Assembly (NCBI RefSeq): GCF_024721175.1
Contig: NZ_CP099399.1
Location: 2,852,001 to 2,916,000 of the forward strand
Length of the DNA stretch: 64,000 nt
From: Rhizobium sp. Pop5
GTDB lineage: Bacteria > Pseudomonadota > Alphaproteobacteria > Rhizobiales > Rhizobiaceae
Reading direction: 5' to 3'
Both the position numbers and the translations under genes were made by a program. The notes under the pieces were generated by a model. The model did not search any database. It saw only the letters and a list, made by a program, of their open reading frames with translations, and was not told the DNA's origin. Positions within the stretch are counted from its first letter, which is position 1. Each line of letters begins with the position of its first letter. Positions 48,051 to 64,000 of the stretch are shown piece by piece.

Positions 48051-49476
48051 GGTCGTGTCCCTACAGATGGTGTAGCTCGGCGGTAGCGAAGCCGCTCGCG
48101 AGCGCGCCCTCAACAGCGCGGTAGTGAGCGGGCGGCGAAGCGGTGGTCATCGATGTTCTTCAGTAGGGTTGGGTTGCTGACACCAACCTGATTCGAAGGA
48201 ACCACCGATGACCGACGACATGATGAACCTGCGTGCGCTCGTGGAGAAGTCCCCCGACGCCGATCTTTTGCGCGAGATGATCGGCTTTGCCGCCGAGCGG
48301 CTGATGGAGCTGGAGGTGGGCGCTGCCACCGGTGCCGGCTATGGCGAGAAGAACCCGCTGCGGACGGCCCAGCGCAACGGCTACCGCGAGCGGGATTGGG
48401 AGACGCGCGCCGGAACCGTCGAGCTGCGCATTCCAAAGCTCAGGAAGGGCTCTTACTTTCCGGGCTTCCTGGAGCCGCGGCGCATGGCCGAGAAGGCGCT
48501 GACGGCGGTCATTCAAGAGGCCTATGTGCAGGGAATCTCGACCCGCTCGGTCGACGATCTGGTCAAGGCCATGGGTATGAGCGGCATCTCCAAGAGCCAG
48601 GTCAGCCGGCTGTGCGAGGAGATCGACGGAAAGGTCAAGGCCTTCCTCGAGCGGCCGATCGAGGGCGACTGGCCATATCTGTGGATCGATGCCACCTACC
48701 TAAAGGTCCGCCGGGGCGGCCGCATCGTCTCCGTTGCCGTGATCATCGCCGTTGGTGTCAACAACGACGGTCGCCGCGAGGTGCTGGGCATGGAGGTCGG
48801 CACCTCCGAAGCCGAGCCGATCTGGACCGAGTTCCTACGCAAGCTGACTCGCCGTGGCCTCAGAGGCGTCAAGCTGGTCGTCTCCGACGCCCACGAGGGC
48901 CTCAAGGCCGCCGTCACCAAGGTGCTAAACGCAACCTGGCAGCGCTGCCGGGTCCACTTCATGCGCAACGTTCTCGCCCACGCCGGCAAGAGCGGTCGGC
49001 GTGTCGTCTCCGCCTTTATCGCCACCGCCTTCGCCCAGGAGACGCCGGAAGCCGCAAGCACCCAATGGCGCGCCGTCGCCGACCAAATCCGCCCGAAGGT
49101 CCCGAAGCTCGCCGCCATCATGGATGATGCCGAAGAAGACGTTCTCGCCTACATGACCTTCCCGAAGGAGCACCGCGCCAAGCTGCACAGCACCAACCCG
49201 ATCGAGCGCCTCAATGGCGAAATCAAGCGCAGGACCGAGGTCGTCGGCATCTTCCCCAATGACGACGCCATCGTCCGCCTCGTCGGCGCGATCCTGCTCG
49301 AGCAAAACGACGAATGGGCTGTCCAACGCGCCAGATACATGACGCTGGAAACCATCAGCCAGATGAGCGATGATCCGCTCATCAGCCTGCCAGCCGTGGC
49401 GCGCTGATCGTCCCGGCCCATGCCGGAGAACGCGGCGACCAAAGCCGCCACCTACACCACTCCCTGGGACATGATC
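48051..49476 (+). mobile_element. Complete IS256-family insertion sequence
   Basis: 1,426 bp. Ends: GGTCGTGTCCC on the left and, inverted, GATCATGTCCC on the right (9 of 11), with an inner shared block TGGTGTAG 6 bases further in. It is flanked by an 8-bp direct duplication CTTCCTTT (48043-48050 and 49477-49484), as expected for IS256 elements. One intact transposase gene lies inside. The preserved duplication suggests a fairly recent insertion. Confidence 0.9.
48208..49407 (+). CDS. IS256-family transposase
   Basis: A 399-residue Mutator-type DDE transposase, full length. Seen: an N-terminal [20 protein letters not shown] and [14 protein letters not shown]. The first catalytic Asp is in [14 protein letters not shown], the second in [14 protein letters not shown], and the Glu in [14 protein letters not shown]. 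It uses GTMP-like regulation unknown to me; no frameshift or stop is present, so it may be active. Confidence 0.96.
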
Positions 49477-50130: not shown

Positions 50131-51063
50131 CTGCAGGCGGAAGATTTCCATCAACCTTATAATTCACCTCGTTATTGTGCGGTACGAGTCCTGTTGCCTA
50201 ATGGGCTGCCGCAAAGCCAATCGGTTCATATGGCTCCAGGTGATGAGCGGCTCCGGCTATACTGCGGCCCAGTACGAATGCAACCAAAACGATTAGACGA
50301 AATTGCCGCAACCCGAATGTCGATAAGCCAGGCAATGCGTGTTCGGCGGTAAATTGTTGACAATGAACACTTCGAAGGGAGGTGGCGCCTCTTCACGGCC
50401 AATTTCCTGAACCAGTGTTGGCGTTACCCGAAAATTAACCATCTTTCGACGTTGCTCCAAACGGAACCCGGCTTCACTGGTTGCCCAGACAGCTCCAGAA
50501 AGGTGCCAGATCCCCTATTTACCTAAGTATGCTGATAAACCTACGTTCATTTTCCGTGGAAGTCGTTAGCAACGTCCAAATTCATCCGCGCCAAGACAGT
50601 AGAAACGTCTATGTATTTTCGACCATCAGGAAGTAACACTACAAGATATACTATGGCCACGGTAGCGTGTTGGACTCGACGCTGGATTCGAAGTTGAATC
50701 CTAACGCAACGCGCGCAAGATGAATCCATCAGTTGCCCGCGCGTGCCCCTCAGGAGAACTAGCGCGGGAGCATCGTTTGTAGCATGTCAAAGGATTCGAG
50801 GGCACTTGAACGGGGGGCTCGCGCGAACCCACGACGAGTTGCGGACTCCGTTTATCGCAGAATTGTCGAGAGCGCTGGCTCTTCGATACCGGTTATCTTC
50901 AGCTTGATCGAGGCACGTCGCTGCTGCCGCTAACCGACGACTCAAGCTTCTCTTCGAATGGGAGGGGTGGCGGGACACGCCCCACCGGGCGGGTCCACGC
51001 AGTCACGGCGGGGTTTTCGCAGATGATATCCATCAGCGCCTGCGTCGAGAGCAAGAACATGCG
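50131..51063. other. Gene-poor island margin with coding-like fragments
   Basis: About 930 bp with no intact gene I can name. Two short minus-strand frames look coding-like: 50293-50442 (49 codons, starting MVNFRVTPTLVQEIGREEAP, open further upstream) and 50547-50729 (60 codons, with VVLLPDGRKYIDVSTVLAR). They may be remains of one gene. No integrase, and no copy of the tRNA 3' end, was noticed. Confidence 0.4.
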
Positions 51064-51462
51064 TCAGAGTGCCATCTTCGCGCCGGAGGCGTTGCCGCCG
51101 CGCTGCAGGCGCTCGCGCTTGCGGCCCTGACCGACGATGATGCGGCCACCGGAATACGGCTTGAAGCCGATGGCGTCTAGCGCCTCCCCGAAGGTCTCCT
51201 GCTGCCGAGCGGCGGTGACAAGCTCGGCGAGATCCTTGACGGAGATCACGACCGCCATGTCCTCGACCTTCTTCATGTTGCCGATGACCTGAGGAACGCC
51301 GCTTCGGGCCTTCCCGAGCACAGCACTCAGCTCGTCCTTGGCCTTCCTGACGGTCATGGGGTCGCCGCCGATCTGGACGATGGTCTCAACGAGGCCGTCG
51401 GTGATGTCCTGCCTGCTGGCGTTGCGGGCTACGTGCACCTGCTTGAGTATCCTCGCGTCCAT
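51064..51462 (-). CDS. Phd/YefM-like antitoxin domain protein
   Basis: A 132-residue protein. Residues 35-80 (AKDELSAVLGKARSGVPQVI, then DMAVVISVKDLAELVTAA) fit the Phd/YefM pattern of DNA-binding antitoxins. The N-terminal 34 residues and a basic C-terminal tail (GQGRKRERLQRGG) are extra. No toxin gene is adjacent on either side, so it is an orphan or has another role. ATG 51462 has GGTGGAG 8 bases upstream. Confidence 0.5.
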   Translation of the reverse strand: MDARILKQVHVARNASRQDITDGLVETIVQIGGDPMTVRKAKDELSAVLGKARSGVPQVIGNMKKVEDMAVVISVKDLAELVTAARQQETFGEALDAIGFKPYSGGRIIVGQGRKRERLQRGGNASGAKMAL

Positions 51463-51988: not shown

Positions 51989-52897
51989 TCATTCGCCAGA
52001 GGTGTAGCCGAACGCTGTCGCAACGTCATCGAATTCGGCTTCGCCTTCCGAGATAACCCGTATGATGGCCGACCGTGGGAGAGGCTCGAGTGAGTTGAAG
52101 TCTAATGCCAATGAGTTCTCGTGGCCGAACGAACGCTCCACTACATCGAACATCGTCTTCGTCGCGGAGTGCGGACCGACGCCCTGAGTGGACGACATGG
52201 GAACTTCAATTTCGAGTATTCGTCCGCGGCCGATGCCTTGGATCGCAGCCAGCATGGCCTCGTCCTCGGTTCCACCCATGAACGGAAAATACGAGGACTC
52301 TCCTCCCCAGTGGCCGACCAGCATATCGACGGCAGAATCCGTGACATCAATCGGGCAAGCTGTCGTCCAGAACCCTCGACGGTCACCATATTCGTGAGGC
52401 GAATGGAGCGCGCTCGACCGATAAATTGTCTCCGCGATTTCGGGCTTCAGGAGTTTCTCTTCGACAACCGATTGGAGCCTCTCGTTCAGTAGATCGAGCG
52501 ATGTCGTTCGTATCCCGGCACGCAGGATCCTCTCCACCTCAGCGTCAGTCATCCGCGTATAATGGAATGCGCGGAAGCTCTTCGACTCCAGAATGGGTGC
52601 CAGCCCATCCCGGGCCTCCATGTATGCTGGGTAGTGCTCGTTCGTGGGCTTCCGGAAGCGAATTCTTTCCTGAAGATCTCTCGGCGGCTCGATGTTATCG
52701 AGCTCCAGCGCTCTCTCCCGATGAAGCCTAATGGTCCCCTGATGCCGGTTGAGATAATCTTGGATATCGCCGTCATATGTGTCGAGGTCCCAGACGCTGA
52801 TCAAAATCGGCTCCATGGCGCATATATGAGGGGGAAGTCGAAACTCCGGGAGGACGGGTCTTTCACCGCTGTCCCGGAGTCCATAGCTCGCTCTCAC
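51989..52897 (-). CDS. Unknown protein, ADP-ribosyltransferase-like hints
   Basis: 302 codons from GTG 52897; ATG 52816 (MEPILISVWDLDTYDG, 275 residues) is an equally possible start, and neither has a good ribosome site. FRAFHYTRMTDAEVERILRA resembles the first strand-helix of ADP-ribosyltransferase-fold proteins (H-Y-T followed by an I-L-x-x-G-I turn), and GFWTTACPIDVTD could be the following element. I would not assign activity. It is the last gene of a four-gene minus-strand operon with the FtsH-like protein, 79-160 bp after the flavin protein gene. Confidence 0.6.
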   Translation of the reverse strand: MRASYGLRDSGERPVLPEFRLPPHICAMEPILISVWDLDTYDGDIQDYLNRHQGTIRLHRERALELDNIEPPRDLQERIRFRKPTNEHYPAYMEARDGLAPILESKSFRAFHYTRMTDAEVERILRAGIRTTSLDLLNERLQSVVEEKLLKPEIAETIYRSSALHSPHEYGDRRGFWTTACPIDVTDSAVDMLVGHWGGESSYFPFMGGTEDEAMLAAIQGIGRGRILEIEVPMSSTQGVGPHSATKTMFDVVERSFGHENSLALDFNSLEPLPRSAIIRVISEGEAEFDDVATAFGYTSGE

Positions 52898-52976
52898 GGC
52901 CGTCCGGCAGGTATCCCTATCGACCCGGTTATCGTGATTTCATCGATCCATTCCGTATCGAGCCCGAAATGCAAAA

Positions 52977-53555
52977 TCAAGGTGAAAGCCTGACGGCACG
53001 CCATTTCGGTCGGCGATCACGATAGAACGCAAACCGTACATGCTCTTTACCAGAGACGTCCAGCCATTCTGCACTGGCGACTGAGATGGCAACGAGGGCA
53101 TACCGATCGTAACGTTCCTTGGGAGCATCGCCATCGTACTCCCAACCCATGGCATTCCCGCTATCGGGGTGAAGCAGGATTCCAGGCGGCAGCTCTCTCT
53201 CAAACTCTTCGCGGGTGTGAGGTCTCAGCCGCTGCCACATCGCTTGCCGGGCTGCCTCCTCATCCACGACCGCCGCCGTGCCAACAAGCTTGATCTGAAC
53301 TCGGCTCTCGAGATCGTAGGAAATCGCTGAGACCCGAGGATCGCGGCGGACGTCCCCGACCTTGGTCGACCGGATGTCCGTGATGAAAGAGATCGTTGCC
53401 TCGTCGAAGTTGGCCTCTCGAAGAATGACCGTCCTCAAGCTTGGGGAACCCGTGCTGCTAACAGTGGCAAGCTGGATGGCAGCAGAAGGCGCGGACCCAT
53501 CCGCCATTGACCGAAGACGATCCCAGATGAGGCCGAGATACTGAAGCTCTGCCAT
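52977..53555 (-). CDS. Pyridoxamine-phosphate-oxidase-fold FMN protein
   Basis: A 192-residue split-barrel flavin protein. Seen: LATVSSTGSPSLRTVILRE (FMN-phosphate contacts), ISFITDIRSTKVGDVRRDPR, and VQIKLVGTAAVVDEE. The C-terminus differs from true PdxH, so it is a general-stress or Alr4036-type member; function unknown. ATG 53555 is chosen for GGGGAA 7 bases upstream. It lies 72 bp after the AAA protease gene in the same operon, an unusual partner. Confidence 0.8.
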   Translation of the reverse strand: MAELQYLGLIWDRLRSMADGSAPSAAIQLATVSSTGSPSLRTVILREANFDEATISFITDIRSTKVGDVRRDPRVSAISYDLESRVQIKLVGTAAVVDEEAARQAMWQRLRPHTREEFERELPPGILLHPDSGNAMGWEYDGDAPKERYDRYALVAISVASAEWLDVSGKEHVRFAFYRDRRPKWRAVRLSP

Positions 53556-53627
53556 TACAACGTTCCCCATTTCCCCCATGCGTCATGCCAGAGAAGATCA
53601 TCTTCGGTCAATGAGGGTCGTCTCGTC

Positions 53628-55544
53628 CTACCCGTAGCCACGCGCCGCAACGCTTTCGTCGCTGTTCATATCCAGAGTATCCAAGACCTCCCTACCCGAC
53701 AGCTCCCCTCGCTCGGCAAGTTCGTCAGCGAGTTTGAGGCATGCGGCGCTGTGCCGTTCGAGGATTACCATGGCACGCTCAAGCTGTTTCCGAAGGATAG
53801 CGTCCACCTGCGCCATGAGGGCGGCATCGAGCGATTTGATCTCGCTGGCGATCTTGCCGTCGATCGGGCCGTACGAGGCGAGCTTCTGCCCCATGCCGAA
53901 CGACCGCTCCAACGCGATGGCGTTTTTTGTGGCCTCGTGAAGATCGGATCCGGCTCCCCCGGCAGCGCCATCGTCCCAGCACCCGAGGAAAAGCTGCTCC
54001 GCCGCCATGCCCGAGACCGTCATCGCGATGATGTCGAGATAATACTCCTTGATCCTGCGATCCCATGGGTCGCGCTTAAAGACAGCCTTCCCCACTGCCT
54101 GATGCTGGGGCGCCAACCTGAGGGTCTTAGAAATCGAGACGCTTTCGAGGTTCATACCAAGCACGGCGCCGACGACCGAATGTCCGATCTCATGAATGGC
54201 ATTCACGCGAATGACCTGCGGCGGGATGAGCACCAGCGGAGGGACGTGACGGAAGACGTCCTCTCCAGAAAGATTTTGTCGACGCCTGCGCGCGGTGCGA
54301 CGAGCCTCCCTCACGATCTGCTCGATTGCGGCGCCCGTCATACCCTCTGTTGCCTCTGCGAAGGCCCGGTGCTCCTCATCAAATAGCGCGCCGCGCAGAT
54401 GCATCCGGAAGATCCCTGCTCGGGCTTCGAGATCCGGCAGCGGGATCCGTACATGTCGGTCAAGGCGGCCTGGCCTAGTGATCGCGGCATCGATCCAGTC
54501 TGGGTTGTTGCAGGCGCCAACGACCACGACACCTTCGCGGCCATCCAATCCATCGAGCTGTTCCAGCAAACCGTTCACAGCCTTGATATCGTAGCTCGCA
54601 TTGTCGCTGGTTCCAGTGGAGGCTCTATCACCGAAGGCATCGAGTTCATCGATGAACAGGATCGATGGCGCCTTCTTCTTGGCCTCCGCAAAGCTGGCCT
54701 GCATTGCCTTCAGGAAGTCCCCGAGATGCCCCTTCGCCTGCCACTTGGCATACGATGCGGGAACCAGCTCCATATTGCATGTCGCCGCGAGCGCGCGTGA
54801 GAAGATAGTCTTACCGACGCCGGGTGGGCCGGACAGCAGGATGCCCTTGTCGACCTCGTCCCACGAAATCGTACCTGCCAGCCAATCAGCGATGTCGAGC
54901 GCAAGATTCAGGCCCCAGTCCTTCGCCTCACCGTAGCCTGCCATATCCTCCAAAGCGGCTTCATGCACGTTGGCGATGGGTCGTTTCACGACGGTGTCCT
55001 GCGAAGCCTCTTCGGCCCCGCGAAGTGCCTCGATCTTCTGGAGCACTGTCAGCACCCGAGACATCGGCCGGCCACGCATCACTGCGAGTTTCAGACGGCG
55101 CCAATTGCTGCGAGCAAGGACTCCGGCCTCTTCCGGCGTGATGTCGATGCCGTAGGACCATTTGACGATGCCACTGACCTGTCTTGTTGTCGGCGCATCG
55201 ACATGCACGACAGCATCGAATGCGACTGCGATCTCGTCAGGGATTTCCTCCTCGTCCTTGTAAAGGATGATCGTCTTCTTGTTCGCGAGGTCATCGAGGA
55301 TTGTGTCGTAGGTGTCCTCCTTGGCGTCACCGACGTAGACTCGATCCGTGACCCTGAAGTCTCCGCGAGGATTGAGATAAGCGGCTGCGGCCCGCAGATA
55401 TGTGCCTTTCTCCTCCCATTTTGAGACGATGAGAGCGACAGCGAAGCGGTCGGCTCGTTCGAATGCGCGAACGGCGCGACAGATGCCTGCATAGGCGATG
55501 TATTCCGGCAGGCTGAATCCCTGCCTAGTGCGAGAAATTTTCAT
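53628..55544 (-). CDS. Soluble FtsH-like AAA ATPase with M41 zinc-protease domain
   Basis: A 638-residue protein. Residues 1-200 are a domain I do not recognise, with no membrane span. AAA core: GPPGVGKT near 238-245, ILFIDELDAFGDR near 295, and TRPGRLDRHVRIPLPD. C-terminal M41 domain: HEIGHS near 451 (HExxH zinc site), GMAAEQLFLG, and SDLHEATKNA with the third ligand Asp. True FtsH has two N-terminal membrane helices; their absence implies a cytosolic protease with its own recognition domain. It is second in a four-gene operon inside the island. Confidence 0.88.
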   Translation of the reverse strand: MKISRTRQGFSLPEYIAYAGICRAVRAFERADRFAVALIVSKWEEKGTYLRAAAAYLNPRGDFRVTDRVYVGDAKEDTYDTILDDLANKKTIILYKDEEEIPDEIAVAFDAVVHVDAPTTRQVSGIVKWSYGIDITPEEAGVLARSNWRRLKLAVMRGRPMSRVLTVLQKIEALRGAEEASQDTVVKRPIANVHEAALEDMAGYGEAKDWGLNLALDIADWLAGTISWDEVDKGILLSGPPGVGKTIFSRALAATCNMELVPASYAKWQAKGHLGDFLKAMQASFAEAKKKAPSILFIDELDAFGDRASTGTSDNASYDIKAVNGLLEQLDGLDGREGVVVVGACNNPDWIDAAITRPGRLDRHVRIPLPDLEARAGIFRMHLRGALFDEEHRAFAEATEGMTGAAIEQIVREARRTARRRRQNLSGEDVFRHVPPLVLIPPQVIRVNAIHEIGHSVVGAVLGMNLESVSISKTLRLAPQHQAVGKAVFKRDPWDRRIKEYYLDIIAMTVSGMAAEQLFLGCWDDGAAGGAGSDLHEATKNAIALERSFGMGQKLASYGPIDGKIASEIKSLDAALMAQVDAILRKQLERAMVILERHSAACLKLADELAERGELSGREVLDTLDMNSDESVAARGYG

Positions 55545-55604
55545 TTTTTGTGTTCCCGGAATAGCTGGATGATGGCGTTGAATCCTGCGCGCTAGCGCTT
55601 CACG

Positions 55605-56219
55605 TCAGCTCCGTATCCGGCGCACCTGCGTGTCTGGCCCAATCAGGGCATCGTCCAGATCGATCTCCAGGAATCCTTGGAGAATGAGCACAGCCACGGT
55701 CGGCATCGGGCGCCCTTCCCTCACGGCCGACATGCATTCGGCCACGTTCAACGATCCCATGTCGTCGAGTGCCGCCAGGAGTCGAATCCTGTCGCCCAGC
55801 GGCGGCCGATAGAAACCGTATCGTAAGAGATCCTTGGCATTGCGAAGACGGAAACTGCCTTCGAGTTCGGCCATGGCAACGGGGCGATAATGATGCCCCA
55901 TGGATTCAGCAAGCGATGTCACCCATGCCGGCGGCATCGGCTCTTCGCGACCGACATCGATCAGGAAGGATCCGCTCTCGGTGATGACAATGAAGTCCAG
56001 TTGGTAGTGGTCGTCGCCTTCCCGAAGGATTGGCGGCGCCGGGCTCCACTGCACGACCTCGGGATCGAGATCCAGCAGACAAGCGAAATCGCGCGCCTGC
56101 TCGGAGCGGAATGCCGCCGGGCCGACACACTTGATAGTGGCTTCGGTATGCGAAATTGCAGGTAGTGTGGTCGAACGTGAGGCAGCATCGCTCCGGCGAC
56201 CATCATGGATACTCTTCAT
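55605..56219 (-). CDS. TnsA-N-like degenerate nuclease-fold protein
   Basis: A 204-residue protein. RSEQARDFACLLDLDPEVVQ, then WSPAPPILREGDDHYQLDF and FLIDVGREE resemble the TnsA N-terminal PD-(D/E)xK domain (E, then D-F, then E-V-K). Here P-D is L-D and the lysine position is glycine, so catalysis is doubtful. The C-terminus (RIRLLAALDDMGSLNVAECM) looks like a small helical DNA-binding part. GAGGG lies 5 bases before ATG 56219. It is the first gene of the operon with the FtsH-like protease. Confidence 0.55.
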   Translation of the reverse strand: MKSIHDGRRSDAASRSTTLPAISHTEATIKCVGPAAFRSEQARDFACLLDLDPEVVQWSPAPPILREGDDHYQLDFIVITESGSFLIDVGREEPMPPAWVTSLAESMGHHYRPVAMAELEGSFRLRNAKDLLRYGFYRPPLGDRIRLLAALDDMGSLNVAECMSAVREGRPMPTVAVLILQGFLEIDLDDALIGPDTQVRRIRS

Positions 56220-56404
56220 GGCATCCCTCGAAATCGAAACGCAGAAATTGGCGACACCGGACAGAGCCGGACGTCGTCAGCGTATTCGGAGCGAGGCGCG
56301 CGCGAAGGTTCTCATGGGCGGGAACAGATATAGAACATTGAGGAGCGCGTCAACAGAAAACAATGATTGCCCCTCCGCACGAGGCGGTCCTATGATGGCT
56401 GGGT
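56220..56404. promoter_or_regulatory. Divergent promoter region of the FtsH-like unit
   Basis: 185 bp between two divergent genes of unknown function. It must carry the promoters of the minus-strand operon and of the plus-strand gene at 56405. No clear operator seen. Confidence 0.5.
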
Positions 56405-57727
56405 TTGACCACAGCGTTACGGGAACCATCAGTGATTTTTGCAAGGCGTGCAGTACAGAAACGGCTCGACTATCTTCGCGACGTTCTAGGTTCCGAGTCT
56501 GTAGACGATATGGTCAATCGATTGAACCGTGTGGGAAAAGATCGCCTGGCGGCCATGTGGGAGGTTGTCGTTCTGGCCGGGCTGGCCAAGTGCGGGAAGC
56601 TGGATCACGAAGCGGCGCTCCCCTCTGGTCGACGACCCGACATCTCGTTCAGGGAAGGTCAGCTCGCGATCGTTGCCGACATCACATGCGTTTCCGACGC
56701 TGGACTTGATGAGCAGAACCCCTTCACGGAACTCATGCGACTGATCTCTGATGCAAAGTCGAAACTTGGTCTACCATCCGGCGGTCTAAGGTTGCAGGTT
56801 CACTCCAAGGATGTGGTTTCGAACCGTGGCCGGAAGCGCGTGCTGCGCTTGCCGCCAAGGAAACAACTTCACGAGTTTGTTCAACGCGAGATCATACCTC
56901 GGGTGCGGGAACAGATTTCCGAAGGGGTCAGCCCTATCACTATCTTCATCGATACCGAGGATACGGGCATTGAGGTCATCATCGATCCGGCTGGATCCGA
57001 TTTTACGTCTGGTGGCCACGCCGCCTATTCCGCGCCCACGATCTTGGACAACAATCCGCTTTACAAGGCGCTCAAAGCAAAGGCTGACCAGTTGCGCGGT
57101 GCCGATAGCATCACTGGCGTGATCGTAGTCGATGGGGACTGCCAGGCACTGTCGACCGAAAGGCTAGGCCACGACACGGTTTCGCGCGAGCAGATCGCGC
57201 AACGGTTTCTGCAGCAGTATTCCTCGGTCGACTTTGTGCTAATCATTGCCGTCCAGGAGGTTTTGGCTCCTACCTGGCCCGCGCGCAACGCAATCAAGCT
57301 CATGCCGGGTCTGGTCACCCGAGATCGCAGTCTTCGCTCGATCCTGAAAGGGGTCTTCGAACAGATGCTCTCGGATCTCCCTATGCCGACTTGTTCCGCC
57401 TCGACAGGTGTAAGCCAGGCACAGACGAGCGGGTATGGACTCGGTCATCACGGAGGATTCAAAATGGATTCGAATAAGCTTCGTGTCAGTGCGCGCGAAC
57501 TGATGGAGGTGCTGGCTGGCCAGCGCACATTTGATGAAGACGCAGCGCTTGGCGCCCGCGATGGCGGTACGCCCAAGAGCGAGATCTCGAAGAAGTTCGC
57601 CCGCGAGCTGAGCCTGGGCCGCCTGCCCTCCGAGATTTCTATCATCCCTTCCGGTGAGGATGAATGCGACGACTGGATCGAGTTCCGGTTCGACTCCCCG
57701 GATCCTGCGATCTCGCGGTTTCGCTAA
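56405..57727 (+). CDS. Unknown protein with PD-(D/E)xK-like segment
   Basis: 440 codons from TTG 56405 (start uncertain; GTG further in is possible). AAMWEVVVLAGLAKCGKLDH, then SGRRPDISF and IVADITCVSD have the spacing of a PD-(D/E)xK core, with the usual E-x-K replaced by D-I-T. VSPITIFIDTEDTGIEVII and FVLIIAVQEVL are core strands. About residues 350-440 are a separate region (KMDSNKLRVSARELMEVLAG) resembling a small regulatory tail. No known family. It is divergent from the FtsH-like operon and may be part of the same system. Confidence 0.6.
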   Translation: MTTALREPSVIFARRAVQKRLDYLRDVLGSESVDDMVNRLNRVGKDRLAAMWEVVVLAGLAKCGKLDHEAALPSGRRPDISFREGQLAIVADITCVSDAGLDEQNPFTELMRLISDAKSKLGLPSGGLRLQVHSKDVVSNRGRKRVLRLPPRKQLHEFVQREIIPRVREQISEGVSPITIFIDTEDTGIEVIIDPAGSDFTSGGHAAYSAPTILDNNPLYKALKAKADQLRGADSITGVIVVDGDCQALSTERLGHDTVSREQIAQRFLQQYSSVDFVLIIAVQEVLAPTWPARNAIKLMPGLVTRDRSLRSILKGVFEQMLSDLPMPTCSASTGVSQAQTSGYGLGHHGGFKMDSNKLRVSARELMEVLAGQRTFDEDAALGARDGGTPKSEISKKFARELSLGRLPSEISIIPSGEDECDDWIEFRFDSPDPAISRFR

Positions 57728-57819: not shown

Positions 57820-58770
57820 GTGCGATACTGGTGGGTAAATCACGCGCAGACAGTGCGCCAGGAGATTGACGGCGGTTATCTTTGGTCACCGGTTAGAGAG
57901 GCCAGTGGTGCGAGGAGCAGCTTCTACGACAATATGCGCCGCGCTGCGCCGGGTGATTTGGTGTTATCCTACGCCGCGGGGAAAGTTGGACGACTTGGAA
58001 TTGTGTCCGACTACGCGATAAGTGCCCCCAAGCCAGAAGAGTTCGGCACCATCGGGATCTACTGGAGCGCTACGGGGTGGCTCCTCCCTGTGCAATGGCT
58101 CGATGCGGATCTGGCAGTCCGCCCAAAAGAACTGATAGGACGCCTCGCCCCACTGCTGCCGACGAAACACTCGCCAATCCAACCGCAAAGTGGAAACGGC
58201 AATCAGAAGGCCTATCTCGCCGAGGTCGATCGGAAAGTAGTTGATCTTATTTTGGCCGCAGCACGGCTACCTGCTGTCGATCGGCTCGCTAAGCCCACTA
58301 GCCCCGCAGCTGATTTCGCAACGACTCTCGATGATGTCGTTGAACGGAACATCCAGCGTGATACGTCGCTTGACGAGACAGTACGCGAACAATTAGTGCG
58401 AGCACGAAGGGGCCAAGGCCTTTTCCGCAAGCGCGTCCTCGACTGCGAACCTATATGTCGAATCACCGGCCTCGAAACACCCAATCTACTGATCGCCAGC
58501 CACATCAAACCCTGGCGTGCATGCGGAACCCCAGCCGAGAGGCTCGATGGAGCGAATGGTTTGATGCTGGCCCCACACGCAGACTTTTTGTTCGATCGCG
58601 GATTGCTTGGTTTCGAAAGCGATGGAAGGCCAATGTTCTCCTCACAGCTGACCGATGCCGATGCTGACAAGTTAGGACTTCACGTTGTGCAGCGGCCGCC
58701 ACCGACGCCGCTGCACAACGATAGCCAGGGCTACCTCAACCATCACCGCATAAATGTCTTTATCCCGTAG
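57820..58770 (+). CDS. HNH endonuclease with N-terminal EVE/PUA-like domain
   Basis: A 316-residue protein starting at GTG 57820. Residues 1-145 (RYWWVNHAQTVRQEIDGGYL, SPVREASGARSSFYDNMR, APGDLVLSYAAGKV) form an EVE-like domain of the kind that reads modified bases. The C-terminal HNH is GLFRKRVLDCEPICRITG, LIASHIKPWRACGT, ERLDGANGLMLAPHADFLFD. Together this suggests a modification-dependent (type IV-like) restriction enzyme, inferred from domains. Its stop abuts the vsr ATG (TAGATG). Confidence 0.87.
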   Translation: MRYWWVNHAQTVRQEIDGGYLWSPVREASGARSSFYDNMRRAAPGDLVLSYAAGKVGRLGIVSDYAISAPKPEEFGTIGIYWSATGWLLPVQWLDADLAVRPKELIGRLAPLLPTKHSPIQPQSGNGNQKAYLAEVDRKVVDLILAAARLPAVDRLAKPTSPAADFATTLDDVVERNIQRDTSLDETVREQLVRARRGQGLFRKRVLDCEPICRITGLETPNLLIASHIKPWRACGTPAERLDGANGLMLAPHADFLFDRGLLGFESDGRPMFSSQLTDADADKLGLHVVQRPPPTPLHNDSQGYLNHHRINVFIP

Positions 58771-59235
58771 ATGCCACGAGATCTGCAGGCCACCGAAGCA
58801 GTCCGCCGCCGGATGCAGCGCACCGCACGCAGGGACAATCCCTTCGAGCGGACCATCAGGTCGCAGCTTTATGCCCGCGGACTGCGCTACCGGATTCACT
58901 ACCCGATCCCGGGAATGAAGCGGACGACCTGCGACTTCGCCTTTCCGGGCTTGAAGATCGCCGTCTTCCTCGACGGATGTTTCTGGCATGGGTGCGAAGT
59001 TCATCCGCCTTCGGTGAAGAAGAATACTGATTTCTGGATGGCGAAGGTCGAGCGCAACCGGGCAAGGGATGAACGGGCGACGGCGCACCTCACGGACCTT
59101 GGCTGGACGGCACTTAGGTTTTGGGAGCACGAAAACGTGGCGACGATCGTCGAGAAGATCGCCGCCACAGTGAAAGCTAGACGGGGACGCGTTCCAAGCT
59201 CACCACCTCTCTCGGGCACGCTGAAGGACAAGTAG
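58771..59235 (+). CDS. vsr: Very short patch repair endonuclease
   Basis: A 154-residue Vsr. It nicks beside T:G mismatches left by deamination of 5-methylcytosine. Seen: NPFERTIRSQLYARGLRYRI, TCDFAFPGLKIAVFLDGCFW, HGCEVHPPSVKKNT, FWMAKVERNRARD and LRFWEHEN. The active-site Asp, His and zinc residues are kept. No cytosine methyltransferase is in the window. Its 3' end overlaps the convergent helicase gene by 36 bp. Confidence 0.95.
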   Translation: MPRDLQATEAVRRRMQRTARRDNPFERTIRSQLYARGLRYRIHYPIPGMKRTTCDFAFPGLKIAVFLDGCFWHGCEVHPPSVKKNTDFWMAKVERNRARDERATAHLTDLGWTALRFWEHENVATIVEKIAATVKARRGRVPSSPPLSGTLKDK

Positions 59236-62200
59236 CGGTCGCCTAGCAAGTTCGAATGTGTCGATGGCCACGTATCGGTGATCAAGGCCAAGTCTGTCGA
59301 ACAGGCGCTCCTGGTTCCACAGCGGATGGACCACGACACCTACATGGCTTCCGCCATTCCCCAACGTGAATGTCGGGATACCCTCGATTTGGGATACCTT
59401 GTTTCCGGGAATAAAGGTAGTGGTCTGGTCCGCAAGCCGCTTTGCCGTTTGCTCCCAGTCTTCGACCTCGAATGCATTGAAGTCGCCGTTAAAGCCGCAA
59501 TCGTACTCGGGATCCACAATCGCGCGAAGGTATGCCAGGCCGAGCCGCCAGTCGAGCAAGCCGTGAAAGTTCCTGTTGTTGTATCGTTGTAGGCACTTGT
59601 AACAAGAGGTCTCGCAGCGGCCAGGATGATCGTTGGCGGCCACTGCTTTGCGAGGCCACTTCGCGGCATCGTCGACAATACTCCGGACAAGTTGCGTCAC
59701 GGGCATTCTGTCGCTGGATAGATGTCTGCAGAACCCGGAGCCGTTTGGCAGAGAATCGGCGATCTGAAGATACGGCAGCAGGTTGCCTTCGCGGGACTTC
59801 AAGATGTTCGGGGCGAGATTGTCGAACTCCTCCGGCGCGATGTCGAGTTCGAGTGCCGCCCGTTGAACAATGAGCTCGGTGGCAGAAATGGCGGCCGCGC
59901 GGACACTCGTGCGAGCCGCGTCACGCTTGTTCATGGAGACGTCCATGTCGAGCAAGCGCAGATTTGGGTTCAGTCTTCGTGGACCGATCTGTAGAGAGTT
60001 CGTGATCTTCGGGGATGCGAGCCAGGCCTTCGTCACCTCCTCGCCGCCTCTCCATCTCATACCGTCCTCTTCGATAACCGCCGGGTCGATGGCCTGCCCC
60101 TTGATTTTCAGAGTCGGCTTGTCCTTGAACCAGTTGATAATCCTGGCGACCCCATCGTTCACGTCCTGCACCGTGTATCCCTCGAAGCCAGAAGGATCCT
60201 CGTCAGTTCGAGATCCCGGGTTCACGAGATAAATCTCCGAGTTCTCCGCGAAATTGACGCGTAGGTTGTCGTGCTCGACGAAAGACAGTGGCTCCCCGAG
60301 ACTTGCCAGAGTTATTAGTTGACCGACTTTAGATGCAATCGCTTCATCCTTGGCTCTGAAGTCGGTTCGATAGGCCGATGGTGTGATGCAGTGGATGGGT
60401 GTGTCGGTTAGCTTGGCACCGCATCCGCAATGCTCCGTATACTCCGTCCCCTTGGAGTATCTGCTGCAAGACTCGCAGAAGCGAAGATGGAAATCATCCT
60501 TCTTCCAAGGTGAAAACGGGGTAAGCCCGGCCGCTAGGTCATCCTTCTTGTGCTCGTCGGGGACCGGAAGCGCACCCGTGAAGCCGACGCACCGATGACG
60601 GAGCTTCTCTCGCGTGCGGACATTTCCGGGTGCGAAGTCGAAGATGGCCATGTCCTGATCGCGGTCGATCGTATCCCAATCGGCCTCGCGCTCGCCCGTC
60701 TTCTTCACAAGGTCGATGTACAGGTTCCGGGACCTCGTGGGCATGCCGTACAGTGGCACCAACCCACCTTCGGCGAGCGCAGCGGCAATACCGACGGCCT
60801 GCTGTCCAAAGTCTTTCCGCAGCTCGTCTATCTGCCGAAGGACTATCTCGACGGAAACGCGCTCCTCGATCTGCTCCTGAGGGCAGTTCGACACTTCCGA
60901 GAGGATCGAAGCAATTGCCTTACGCCTGCCGTCCGTACGCTGAAGCGCAGATCGCAGTTTCTCGGGCCAGCCAGCACCTTCCCGGAAATATTCGTTGCAA
61001 TAGAGGAACTCGCCATGGATGTCGCCGGGGACCATCGCATCGCCCGCCCAGTCGTCGCCGGACTCTTTTCGCAGAAGATCGAAAGCTTCGACCAGCCAGA
61101 ATTTCCTGAGTAGCCGCGATGGGATGTCGACCAAGCCCGTTGTGATGAACGGCGGCGGCGGCGCGGCGCCAGTGATCTCTATCGGATTGTGGAAGTAGTG
61201 GATGTCGTGGCTCTTGCTCCGGCAAACCGTCAGCACGGTGGAGAACGCCTGGCCACGACGTCCGGCTCGACCGACACGCTGTTGGTAGTTGAAGCGCTGA
61301 GGAGGCATGTTGCCCTGATAAACGGCTTGGAGCGACCCAATGTCGACACCCACTTCCATGGTGGTCGTTACCGACAGCAAGTCGGCGGTATCAAAGCGCT
61401 GACGGCCTTCGAAATCTTCATCCGCCTCCTTCTCTTCGCGAACGAAAACGCCCTTGAACTGCTGCAGTCGCGCACCGGGATCACGGGTCTGTCCAGTCAG
61501 TTCCTCGCACTTCAGTCTGAAGAGGGGCTCGCGCGTATCGATCGCACGCATGACTCGCCGTCCAAGGAAGTTGCTTCTCGCGACCTTGCCAGCGGTCAGA
61601 TCACCGTCCCAAACCAACTTTTCCCCACACCGCGTGCATCGGTCGAACCCGGCATGCAGATGAACACGACCACACTTCGTGCATCGAATTGCCTTGTCGC
61701 CGGGACGGGCGGTGCGGAAATAAAGCCTGGTGATGTCGATGGAGCCGTCACCCCGCGTCTGATGCAAGTCGTCCGCCAACAGTTTGAGGAAACGATCCCC
61801 TTCCGCCACCGGATCGTTGAATATCTGCTCCAGGAGCGTCTTGAGACGGTTCTTCCTCTTCCCGACCATATCGAGGCCGGATGCCCACGGCGTAGGCGCC
61901 TCTTCCTTGTACTGGTTTGGCGTGATCCGATAAGCATCCGAGAAAATGCGTAGCCAGGCGTCGTTCCGCGAGCATTCTTCCGTGTAATCGACCGCCCCGT
62001 AGAAGCTCGGCCAGCCAAGGCCCGTCTCTTCGAGAGCGAAGTAGGTCTTGCTGAAAAGAAGATCCGTTGCCTCAGGCGGCTGTTCCTTCTGTACCCGCTG
62101 CCGTGCGCGGCCAAGTCGCTGAAGATTGTCGTCGCTTTCGGTCTCCTCCGACTTCCAGACGATCGGCTTGTCCTCGTCCATGACAAAGAACTTATACCAC

Positions 62201-64000
62201 GGCTTGTTGTCTATGCGGGTGAACCGCGTGTCAGCACCGTCGATCGGGGTCGAGCCGATGCTGAGAAGCTCCTGCATGATGGGTCGTACGGTATCTCCAG
62301 CTTCTCCCCGCTTGAACTCGAAAAGGTCTTGAAGCGGGATGCTTGGGGGAAAATCGACGGCAGCCTTGCGAGCTTCTAACGCCTCGAGCTCTTCCGCAAT
62401 CGCCCCGACTTCCTTGTATTTCTTCGCGGCCGTGAGTTCGGCCATCTGGGCTTCGAGGGCGTCCAGTTTAGCATGATCTTCCGCCGAGAAAGCCAGCTCG
62501 GCTCCCATCTTCGCCGCTGCCGTCATGAGAATCTCCCGTCGAAGATCTCGCAGGTGCTGAACTTCGACGTCGAGGGCCAACGTCGCCGCGTCCTCTCGAC
62601 TGTCCGAGAAGGCTACCAGTTTCCCGTCACCACCCTGCGATCTGAGCGATGCGACAAGTTCGGTTGCCAGGAGCTGAGACGTCTTGGCGAAACCTGTTCG
62701 GAAGCTTCGGATCGGCGACTTTCGCCCTTCCCGCTTCAAAGAATTCGGCGCTCTGAAGCGTCCGGAATAGTCGGTGCCGCACTTCGCGCAGCAGTAGGGA
62801 ACAGCGGTTCCCTCCTCGTCAGCGCCACGGGAATGGAAGTCCTTGGGATGAGACTTCGGCCAAAGCAGCAAATAGCCCGGCACATCGCCCGGATTCCCTG
62901 TTTCGTCCACTACACCGCTGTATGGATTCAGGAAACTTTTCCTCCACGCAAAGGGAGATCCATCCTTGATCTCACGTTGTGGATCAGCTTCCGAAGGCCA
63001 AAACAGCGCAAATTCGCGATGGCTCGCATCCTCGAAGCGGGTCGAGACCGCACTCTCCGGCAGCTTCTCGAGTTCCTGAGGAGCTGGAAGCAGCGACACC
63101 TTTGTCGACGAACCGCCATTGACGGCTGATCCCCGTTTTCCGCCGAGATAAAGATCGCCGCAGGCTTCGCAATAGAGCATCTCGAAAAGGCGCTTCTTCT
63201 GGCCGCCTTCCGCGTTGACTTCATGGTCTTCGCCGCGCTCGATGCTCGGCTCGCCCCACGACAACCGCCCTTCGGCATCGACTCCGACCGATGAGAAAAG
63301 TCCCTCAATGTTGCGCACGAAACAGTGCATCCTGAAACCGGGAAGATGCCCGACGCCGTCCGGCTTGAACGCATCGGGCAGGATTTCCTCCGGCAGATCA
63401 GGAATGGCGCGCATGGCGAGAAGGCCTCTGATGGCACGCACGTCACTGCCGGGGTAGAGTTTCTTTGCAAGGTCCGAAGCCGTCTGGGGTGTTCTGCCGC
63501 CAGGGGCACCCTCCTTCTGCATCGCGAAATCCAGCATCGAGGCGGCAACCGACGTCGCCTCTTTCAACGCGCTCCTGACCTCCAGCGTTTCGACGCCCGG
63601 AATGCTTTGGGCAGCTGAAACGAAAGCCCGGAAAATCGCCGCGCCGTCCCGTCTGTAGTCCAGACTGGAAAGCGCGTCGGCGATCGCCACGAGCTTGTCC
63701 GCACTTGGTCGCGACTTCGGCTCCTTCACGAGGTATGGTACGCCCTTGACGACGCTTTCCTTCCAGATCCTGTCGATCGCATCCTCGGGCGCACCCGCCG
63801 TTCCTGCGGAACCGAACATGTTTCGCAGGTATGCAACGCTGGCAGCTGCATTGTCGTCGTCCATTGGCAGCGAGGCCGACGAAGCTAGGATGCGAAGCTT
63901 ATGCGCATGCTCAGGCTGGAGGAGGCCCAACCTCTCGAGGAGCACCTTCAGAAGTCCAGCCATCTCCGCCCCGGCCGACCCGCGGATAAGATGCAATTCG
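59200..64000 (-). CDS. Giant DUF1998 helicase, DruE-like or fused DrmA/DrmB-like, N-terminus missing
   Basis: About 1,600 residues are in the window; the start lies beyond the right edge. The first codons read ELHLIRG, completing a (D)ELH Walker B box, then SSASLP as motif III. Later come VAFSDSRED (motif IV), VTTTMEVGVDIGSL and QQRVGRAGRRGQ (motifs V and VI). Several zinc-finger-like CxxC pairs occur: CEACGDLY, CCAKCGTDY, CTKCGRVH with CTRCGEKL, and CESCSRY. The C-terminal DUF1998 cysteine cluster is CETSCYKCLQRY. Size and a helicase joined to DUF1998 fit Druantia DruE; a DISARM-type DrmA-DrmB fusion is the alternative. It is convergent with vsr. Stop at 59200-59202. Confidence 0.85.
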   Translation of the reverse strand, partial: ELHLIRGSAGAEMAGLLKVLLERLGLLQPEHAHKLRILASSASLPMDDDNAAASVAYLRNMFGSAGTAGAPEDAIDRIWKESVVKGVPYLVKEPKSRPSADKLVAIADALSSLDYRRDGAAIFRAFVSAAQSIPGVETLEVRSALKEATSVAASMLDFAMQKEGAPGGRTPQTASDLAKKLYPGSDVRAIRGLLAMRAIPDLPEEILPDAFKPDGVGHLPGFRMHCFVRNIEGLFSSVGVDAEGRLSWGEPSIERGEDHEVNAEGGQKKRLFEMLYCEACGDLYLGGKRGSAVNGGSSTKVSLLPAPQELEKLPESAVSTRFEDASHREFALFWPSEADPQREIKDGSPFAWRKSFLNPYSGVVDETGNPGDVPGYLLLWPKSHPKDFHSRGADEEGTAVPYCCAKCGTDYSGRFRAPNSLKREGRKSPIRSFRTGFAKTSQLLATELVASLRSQGGDGKLVAFSDSREDAATLALDVEVQHLRDLRREILMTAAAKMGAELAFSAEDHAKLDALEAQMAELTAAKKYKEVGAIAEELEALEARKAAVDFPPSIPLQDLFEFKRGEAGDTVRPIMQELLSIGSTPIDGADTRFTRIDNKPWYKFFVMDEDKPIVWKSEETESDDNLQRLGRARQRVQKEQPPEATDLLFSKTYFALEETGLGWPSFYGAVDYTEECSRNDAWLRIFSDAYRITPNQYKEEAPTPWASGLDMVGKRKNRLKTLLEQIFNDPVAEGDRFLKLLADDLHQTRGDGSIDITRLYFRTARPGDKAIRCTKCGRVHLHAGFDRCTRCGEKLVWDGDLTAGKVARSNFLGRRVMRAIDTREPLFRLKCEELTGQTRDPGARLQQFKGVFVREEKEADEDFEGRQRFDTADLLSVTTTMEVGVDIGSLQAVYQGNMPPQRFNYQQRVGRAGRRGQAFSTVLTVCRSKSHDIHYFHNPIEITGAAPPPPFITTGLVDIPSRLLRKFWLVEAFDLLRKESGDDWAGDAMVPGDIHGEFLYCNEYFREGAGWPEKLRSALQRTDGRRKAIASILSEVSNCPQEQIEERVSVEIVLRQIDELRKDFGQQAVGIAAALAEGGLVPLYGMPTRSRNLYIDLVKKTGEREADWDTIDRDQDMAIFDFAPGNVRTREKLRHRCVGFTGALPVPDEHKKDDLAAGLTPFSPWKKDDFHLRFCESCSRYSKGTEYTEHCGCGAKLTDTPIHCITPSAYRTDFRAKDEAIASKVGQLITLASLGEPLSFVEHDNLRVNFAENSEIYLVNPGSRTDEDPSGFEGYTVQDVNDGVARIINWFKDKPTLKIKGQAIDPAVIEEDGMRWRGGEEVTKAWLASPKITNSLQIGPRRLNPNLRLLDMDVSMNKRDAARTSVRAAAISATELIVQRAALELDIAPEEFDNLAPNILKSREGNLLPYLQIADSLPNGSGFCRHLSSDRMPVTQLVRSIVDDAAKWPRKAVAANDHPGRCETSCYKCLQRYNNRNFHGLLDWRLGLAYLRAIVDPEYDCGFNGDFNAFEVEDWEQTAKRLADQTTTFIPGNKVSQIEGIPTFTLGNGGSHVGVVVHPLWNQERLFDRLGLDHRYVAIDTFELARRPLLVLQRARERW

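What the first reader, a model, noticed from the sequence alone, without database searches (positions are those of the whole stretch)
51989..57727. Candidate undescribed system built around a soluble FtsH-like protease
Four minus-strand genes spaced 60 to about 80 bp (TnsA-like protein, cytosolic AAA/M41 protease, FMN split-barrel protein, unknown protein with ART-like hints) face a divergent gene with a PD-(D/E)xK-like segment. They sit between a tRNA-linked island border and a restriction/helicase cluster. I know no named defence system with this set. A protease that senses or destroys phage factors, with degenerate nucleases as DNA sensors, is one possible design.
Basis: inference. Interest (0 to 1): 0.85.

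Follow-up and report, generated by a model that had tools for sequence, protein, structure and literature searches.

The report
SOS-controlled TnsA-like and soluble FtsH operon
A pair of adjacent genes in rhizobia and their relatives, one resembling a transposon DNA-cutting protein that has lost its cutting site and one encoding a protein-shredding machine, sits behind a copy of the switch that these bacteria use for DNA-damage responses, which suggests an unstudied way of clearing proteins when DNA is harmed or invaded.

Summary
The proposed five-gene system is not a unit, but its core is real. A TnsA-like gene (55605-56219) precedes a soluble AAA/M41 protease gene (53628-55544). A scan of 84,980 species genomes gave 147 TnsA-like relatives; in 73 of the 80 kept, the protease is the next or next-but-one gene. 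All 80 shown are Hyphomicrobiales by title; no paper found describes the pair.

FMN, ART-like and divergent genes are not conserved partners.

The new result is control. An exact alphaproteobacterial LexA box (GTTCN7GTTC) lies upstream of 92 of 102 TnsA-like genes, against 19 of 1,648 neighbouring genes. In this genome the motif also lies just upstream of lexA (reversed) and uvrA. Related protease operons without TnsA-like have it in 1 of 24; 13 of 24 carry a divergent putative regulator.

The TnsA-like model matches Tn7 TnsA but lacks two of three catalytic residues. The protease keeps its catalytic residues in 115 of 115 full-length homologues.

Best reading: a LexA-repressed protease addressed to DNA-bound proteins by a dead-nuclease adaptor, on defence- and Tn7-rich islands. 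Regulation is strongly supported by comparison; substrate and purpose are inferred.

The parts
56322..56336 (-). LexA/SOS box, GTTCN7GTTC, 117 to 103 nt before the TnsA-like start codon
   Evidence: Exact box upstream of 92 of 102 TnsA-like genes against 19 of 1648 neighbouring genes; top of 2560 unbiased repeat tests. By itself one box in 64 kb is not significant.
55605..56219 (-). TnsA-like protein, 204 aa: PD-(D/E)xK-fold domain with lost catalytic E and K, then a winged-helix domain
53628..55544 (-). Soluble FtsH-like AAA+ zinc protease, 638 aa; N-domain (1-180) possibly a degenerate AAA domain
   Evidence: Pfam AAA and M41 over cut-off; catalytic residues invariant in 115 of 115 full-length homologues; model matches FtsH 3kds E 6.3e-25 and tandem-AAA p97/NVL
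51064..51462 (-). Phd-like small protein of a family that often follows the protease directly; here 2165 bp downstream, with the FMN and ART-like genes between
   Evidence: Profile built without it finds it at E 2.4e-06; the family's 14 hits (13 distinct loci) all lie downstream of the protease on the same strand, 12 hits (11 loci) directly. PhdYefM only at E 0.15.
52977..53579 (-). FMN-binding PNPOx-type protein; local addition, not a conserved partner
   Evidence: Pfam PF12766, PF01243; best-scoring genus homologues 40% and 35%, no protease copy in the 9 kb read around each
51989..52816 (-). ART-like protein of unproven function (alternative start 52897); local addition
   Evidence: Homologues in 6 of 147 other genus genomes, none next to the protease by coordinates (compared); conserved H-Y and WGGE motifs
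56432..57727 (+). Divergent neighbour (alternative start 56405); shares the intergenic region that holds the box
   Evidence: One homologue in 147 other genus genomes, G028, 54%
57820..63999 (.). Neighbouring HNH protein (57820-58770 +), Vsr (58771-59235 +) and DruE of a Druantia type II locus (59200 to beyond the window, -); not part of the unit
   Evidence: PADLOC/Pfam; rest of the locus in L208

Best explanation
A two-gene operon repressed by LexA and switched on by DNA damage. The TnsA-like protein keeps the TnsA fold, including its winged helix, but not the cutting site, so it most likely acts as an adaptor that recognises DNA ends, nucleoprotein complexes or transposase-like proteins. 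The protease, a soluble ring ATPase with an intact pore, ATPase and zinc site, then unfolds and degrades what the adaptor presents. During phage entry, conjugation, transposition or other DNA damage it would strip harmful DNA-bound proteins. Its lodging beside Druantia and Tn7-like elements suggests that it mainly serves contests between mobile elements and hosts. Third genes vary and are accessories; here an FMN gene and an ART-like gene lie between the protease gene and a Phd-like gene. Shown by comparison: the pair, the box and the residue conservation. Inferred: LexA binding in cells, adaptor role, substrate, benefit.
For: Pair: protease gene next or next but one in 73 of 80 kept loci (147 relatives found), gap 100 bp or less in 55 of 73. 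Control: exact box upstream of 92 of 102 genes against 19 of 1648, or 15 of 703 neighbours that have at least 150 bp of intergenic DNA before them; counting both orientations 92 of 102 against 74 of 1648 and 55 of 703. Of 2560 repeat-and-spacing tests GTTC with spacing 7 scores 92 and the best one that is not a shift of it 9; 26 of 31 cluster representatives at 60% identity have it while only 35 of 465 pairs of their upstream regions are otherwise similar. In the own genome the motif lies 48 bp before lexA (opposite orientation) and 125 bp before uvrA (same orientation). GTTCN7GTTC is the published Caulobacter LexA box (passages of PMC12700426, and PMC9578287 Table 1). Specificity: protease operons without TnsA-like have the box in 1 of 24, 2 of 24 in either orientation. 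Machine: HExxH, presumed third zinc ligand, Walker A lysine, Walker B DE, arginine fingers and the presumed pore tryptophan are the same in 115 of 115 distinct full-length homologues (shorter ones left out). Adaptor: TnsA fold with D75 in 78 of 79, catalytic E replaced (A in 71 of 79), no conserved lysine (sites mapped through). Tn7 link: tns genes within 6 kb in 29 of 80 loci, the nearest one pointing away from the pair in all 29; 9 of 41 TnsA-type against 0 of 23 other loci, P 0.021; TnsB-, TniB- and TniQ-type representatives confirmed by Pfam.
Against: No expression, binding or phenotype data. The best-conserved half of the TnsA-like protein is its winged helix, which could bind a protein and not DNA. 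The Phd-like and PIN neighbours fit an antitoxin-degrading role as well. In 23 of 80 loci none of the tns, methylase, PIN/VapB-like or Druantia genes was seen within 6 kb. The Tn7 polarity has one exception in the second set (8 of 9). Homologous promoters are not independent events. The window's own box, alone, is within chance. Of the 23 own-genome sites of the motif, 13 lie inside called genes, so the motif alone is not proof of a LexA site.
Confidence: 0.45

Rival explanations
1. SOS-gated suicide: after DNA damage the protease degrades Phd-like antitoxins and frees toxins such as the PIN protein, the metallophosphoesterase or the ART-like protein, so the cell dies before a parasite spreads.
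For: A Phd-like family lies downstream of the protease in 13 distinct loci; a PIN gene lies upstream of the pair in 20 of 80 loci and a small VapB-like gene in 17; that small protein is weakly related to the Phd-like family by profile (E 6.5e-05, probability 64%). In 2 distinct loci (L068/L179 and L090/L162, each fetched twice) the VapB-like gene has its own exact box.
Against: Most pairs have no such neighbour; 44 of 73 have no third gene on the same strand within 200 bp or run off the contig. In most listed loci the PIN gene faces the other way from its partner. No toxin is constant. Phd-like is a resemblance: Pfam PF02604 is not reached.
Confidence: 0.2
2. Anti-repressor of mobile elements: like ImmA of ICEBs1 (recalled), the SOS-induced protease destroys repressors or transposase complexes so that the island or a neighbouring Tn7-like element moves or stops moving.
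For: In 29 of 29 loci of the first set the nearest tns gene points away from the pair; tns genes were seen near TnsA-type loci only (9 of 41 against 0 of 23); a TnsA copy is an obvious ligand for TnsB or TnsC; 16 plasmid records carry a TnsA-like copy.
Against: Different tns families adjoin nearly the same pair (L175 and L181 are 92% alike up to the protease end and then differ); 51 of 80 loci have no tns gene within 6 kb; one exception in polarity.
Confidence: 0.17
3. A companion of Druantia: the pair assists or guards the neighbouring Druantia system.
For: In 7 of 17 genus genomes with DruE a protease-family gene lies within 10 kb (coordinates compared by hand), with Druantia types II and III.
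Against: In the 80 loci only 6 show Druantia genes within 6 kb, and two of the seven Druantia-linked proteases lack TnsA-like (L212, L213). Shared islands explain the linkage.
Confidence: 0.08

Closest known systems
FtsH / m-AAA zinc proteases (TIGR01241, PF01434)
   Same: AAA ATPase joined to M41 protease with the catalytic residues
   Different: Soluble; N-terminal membrane segment replaced by a domain that may be a degenerate AAA; only 193 bits against a cut-off of 600 for FtsH; carried in addition to a second M41 protein that scores 241.8 bits, the presumed housekeeping FtsH
TnsA of Tn7
   Same: Both domains and their order in the predicted fold
   Different: Two of three catalytic residues missing; paired with a protease and not with TnsB/TnsC
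LexA regulon of Alphaproteobacteria
   Same: Same box motif as before lexA and uvrA of the same genome
   Different: A lineage-restricted, island-borne operon; no report of it found
ImmA/ImmR-type SOS-linked metalloprotease switches (recalled)
   Same: A metalloprotease on mobile DNA tied to the SOS response; relatives without TnsA-like often have a divergent putative regulator
   Different: ImmA has no AAA ring; here control is by a LexA box
IetAS anti-phage system
   Same: AAA domain scores with IetA profiles (79.6 bits)
   Different: Match confined to the AAA domain; the protease is M41 in the same chain

Membership tests
FtsH (TIGR01241) | AAA plus M41 with HExxH and third zinc ligand | tested here: met
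   (115 of 115 full-length homologues; ligand D534 assigned by analogy)
FtsH (TIGR01241) | N-terminal membrane anchor | tested here: not met
   window peak hydropathy 0.77 in residues 1-190; 23 of 115 relatives exceed 1.6, not examined further
FtsH (TIGR01241) | NCBIfam equivalog score | tested here: not met
   193 bits, cut-off 600
TnsA | Two-domain fold | tested here: met
TnsA | Catalytic E, D, K triad | tested here: not met
   Only D75 kept; mapping by profile to TnsA-type proteins of rhizobial Tn7-like elements, themselves named by eye and position; the triad itself is recalled
TnsA | Encoded with TnsB and TnsC as one operon | tested here: not met
   The protease follows in 73 of 80; nearby tns operons have another TnsA-type gene as their nearest member in 23 of 29 loci
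LexA regulon | GTTCN7GTTC in the promoter region, conserved | tested here: met
LexA regulon | LexA binding and induction by DNA damage | not testable with these tools
   needs bench work
Druantia | Pair is a constant Druantia neighbour | tested here: not met
   Druantia genes seen in 6 of 80 loci
Phd/YefM antitoxin (third gene) | Pfam PF02604 over cut-off | tested here: not met
   12.3 bits, cut-off 29.8; 1 of 12 members at E up to 5
Anti-phage defence system | Protects against phage | not testable with these tools
   no PADLOC family for the TnsA-like protein, and AAA-domain matches only for the protease

The most novel reading that the evidence does not exclude
A new kind of SOS function: DNA-addressed proteolysis by a soluble AAA zinc protease whose adaptor is a domesticated, cutting-dead transposase subunit, a bacterial counterpart of the p97-SPRTN pathway (recalled) turned against invading or transposing nucleoprotein complexes.
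Probability: 0.3. Interest if true: 0.88.

Novelty: categorically new. Interest (0 to 1): 0.77.

Why it matters
The pair recurs across Rhizobium and related genera, is conserved as a unit, and carries the same control motif as lexA, so it is probably part of the DNA-damage response of these bacteria, yet none of the paper searches found it described. It would show a transposase subunit recruited as a protease adaptor and link SOS, mobile elements and regulated proteolysis. The predictions are sharp and cheap to test: induction by DNA damage, LexA binding, and capture of substrates by a protease trap.

Tried and rejected
Five-gene unit: rejected on co-occurrence. Direct scan of genome contigs with the protease: nothing confirmed; the TnsA-like alignment worked. 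Phages and viral contigs, searched with the TnsA-like protein or alignment: none. A sample of 385 alphaproteobacterial genomes: only the own genome at E 1e-10. N-domain as a degenerate AAA by profile-profile: weak only (P 0.012 to 0.015 over 47 to 48 columns); the structural support is a p97/NVL alignment with rmsd near 22 A, so it is possible and not shown. Transposon-end repeats near tns operons: none found by my crude search, so whether the pair lies inside or outside the Tn7-like elements is open. A shared short motif (FGxAL..GF) in small proteins near the protease: seen by eye, not explained. First own-genome box pattern was wrongly fixed at one base and missed the window's own site; repeated with a better pattern. 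Promoter and terminator scan gave no more than chance.

Limits of counts: genes were called by my own codon-usage script, which misses genes under 45 to 50 codons and can misplace starts, so box distances scatter. Genomes reached by two routes overlap: upstream regions were made distinct by exact identity, the 115 TnsA-type protease loci are 97 distinct ones, the 24 others are distinct. Loci were chosen around the protease or TnsA-like gene, so neighbour counts describe those surroundings only; 80 of 147 relatives were kept by the tool. Neighbour families (PIN, VapB-like, MPE, tns and others) were first named by eye; representatives tested with Pfam: MPE and methylase, PIN just under its cut-off, TnsB, TniB and TniQ (TnsA1 and TnsA2 gave no family), VapB-like none.
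Full report
What is there. The window lies in a genome (G000:C2:2852001-2916000) whose closest hits are Rhizobium. Minus-strand genes run TnsA-like (55605-56219), soluble FtsH-like protease (53628-55544), FMN-binding protein (52977-53579), ART-like protein (51989-52816 or 52897) and, outside the given coordinates, a Phd-like small protein (51064-51462). Across a divergent gene, an HNH protein and Vsr lies a Druantia type II locus: DruE2 scores 1475 bits and the own genome continues with genes of 687, 815 and 605 residues, the last a cytosine methylase. The genome has a second, better-scoring M41 protein, presumably the housekeeping FtsH (241.8 bits for M41 against 55.1 for this one).

The unit. 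The protease family is in 85 of 148 genomes of the genus at E 1e-60 or better, often in several copies. A scan of one genome per species with the TnsA-like alignment found 147 relatives and kept 80; the titles shown name genera that I recall as Hyphomicrobiales, for example Rhizobium, Agrobacterium, Ensifer, Mesorhizobium, Shinella, Microvirga, Rhodopseudomonas, Afipia. In 73 of 80 the next or next-but-one gene on the same strand is the protease; 6 have none and 1 has the protease but no called TnsA-like gene. The gap is 100 bp or less in 55 of 73. In a sample of 385 alphaproteobacterial genomes only the own genome matched at E 1e-10. TnsA-like copies are on 16 plasmid records, 6 of them typed conjugative, and were not found in the viral and phage collections.

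What is not in the unit. ART-like: 6 of 147 other genus genomes, one of them weak; compared by coordinates, none lies next to a protease copy. Against this, in L133 an ART-like gene lies upstream of a pair with two genes between. Divergent gene: 1 of 147 others, about 8 kb from a pair. FMN gene: only distant relatives, the two best-scoring at 40% and 35%, neither with a protease copy in the 9 kb read around it. One Rhizobium leguminosarum record may carry both a 98% ART-like and an 81% protease protein, judged only from equal contig lengths.

Third genes. On the same strand within 200 bp of the protease end, 29 of 73 loci have one: metallophosphoesterase 7, a protein of about 170 residues 5, a DUF6634-like protein 5 and others (DUF6634, under its cut-off). 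A Phd-like family gives 14 hits in 13 distinct loci, each downstream of the protease on the same strand, 12 hits (11 loci) directly (-14 to +81 bp); in the window and in L141 about 2.1 kb away. A profile built without the window protein finds it at E 2.4e-06. So in this window two genes appear to have come between the protease gene and its usual follower; an independent Phd-like gene is the alternative, because a short PIN-like remnant follows it (50899-51060, by eye).

Control. Reading the region upstream of the TnsA-like gene and its relatives showed GTTC-N7-GTTC, the LexA box of Caulobacter (passages seen in PMC12700426, and PMC9578287 Table 1). In 350 bp upstream, gene orientation, the exact box is present in 92 of 102 distinct TnsA-like loci and in 19 of 1648 other genes of the same loci; with one mismatch 100 of 102 against 231 of 1648. 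Restricting the background to genes with at least 150 bp of intergenic DNA gives 15 of 703; either orientation gives 92 of 102 against 74 of 1648 and 55 of 703. Among all 256 four-base direct repeats at ten spacings GTTC/7 ranks first with 92; the next that is not a shifted reading of the same site has 9. At 60% protein identity there are 31 clusters, 26 representatives with the box and 29 clusters with at least one; only 35 of 465 representative pairs share other upstream similarity. Background hits include a uvrA start in another genome and a uvrD-like start, both by eye. In the own genome 23 sites fit GTTCNNTNNNYGTTC (10 for the reversed control). Thirteen lie inside called genes. Nine are intergenic: 48 bp before lexA (opposite orientation), 125 bp before uvrA, before the TnsA-like gene, between a DNA polymerase III alpha-type gene and its neighbour, near an alkyltransferase-type gene, before a Mg-chelatase-type gene, near a radical-SAM/HHH gene, and two near genes not identified. 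One overlaps a doubtful small frame 49 bp before a UvrD-type helicase. One box alone in the window is within chance (3 found, 1.62 expected); the comparison carries the claim.

Contrast. Of 23 protease loci of the genus without TnsA-like, 12 have a DUF6634-like gene upstream. Operons without TnsA-like have the box in 1 of 24, 2 of 24 in either orientation; 13 of 24 have a divergent gene of a helix-turn-helix-like family (named by eye; no Pfam family), against 0 of 115 TnsA-type loci, 97 of them distinct.

Setting. Tns genes lie within 6 kb in 29 of 80 loci, and in all 29 the nearest one points away from the pair. In the genus set 9 of 41 TnsA-type and 0 of 23 other loci have them (P 0.021), with one of the nine pointing the other way. 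DruE is in 17 of 148 genus genomes and in 7 of these a protease-family gene lies within 10 kb (compared by hand). So the pair travels with defence and mobile DNA, without being tied to one system; in 23 of 80 loci none of these neighbours was seen.

Interpretation. LexA control, a dead nuclease fold with a winged helix and an intact unfolding protease point to damage-induced removal of DNA-bound proteins (0.45). Antitoxin destruction (0.2), anti-repressor action on mobile elements (0.17) and a Druantia companion (0.08) are not excluded. Literature: searches; passages seen in PMC8649781, PMC10924106, PMC12700426 and PMC9578287; other papers seen only as listings. None of these describes the pair. 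Statements on ImmA, p97-SPRTN and the TnsA triad are recalled.

Noticed in passing
window 50899-51060: A short PIN-like start (by eye) directly after the Phd-like gene; the rest of the frame is lost, so it looks like a broken toxin-antitoxin remnant.
   Followed up: partly
window 48208-49407: A 399-residue transposase-like gene (IS256 type by eye) between ABC-transporter-like genes and the tRNA-Arg.
   Followed up: no
L053:9896-10720: The closest protease relative found in the genus (68%) lacks TnsA-like and has instead a separate 274-residue protein with an M41-like HEVGH site just upstream.
   Followed up: no
window 51064-51462 C-terminus; L146:3759-3956; L133:10512-10667; L087:10566-10733; N-termini of the c4 family (L076:9097-10074): A recurring short motif, FGxAL..xGF-like and followed by a basic stretch, in otherwise different small proteins near the protease; it could be a recognition tag.
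   Followed up: partly
L057 and L061 TnsA1 family: The TnsA-type protein of one family of rhizobial Tn7-like elements itself seems to lack the catalytic E and K in its profile.
   Followed up: no
L222:6878-8797: A distant protease relative sits among phage-like genes (by eye) with a small phosphoesterase-like gene after it.
   Followed up: no
L209:5052-7809: A CBASS-like gene group by eye (nucleotidyltransferase-like, patatin-like) in the island that also holds the only homologue of the divergent gene.
   Followed up: no
L068/L179 and L090/L162: The small VapB-like gene upstream of the pair has its own exact LexA box in these two loci (each fetched twice).
   Followed up: partly
L175 and L181: Two Rhodopseudomonas loci are 92% alike up to the protease end and then carry different Tn7-like operons, so this end may be a junction hot spot.
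   Followed up: partly
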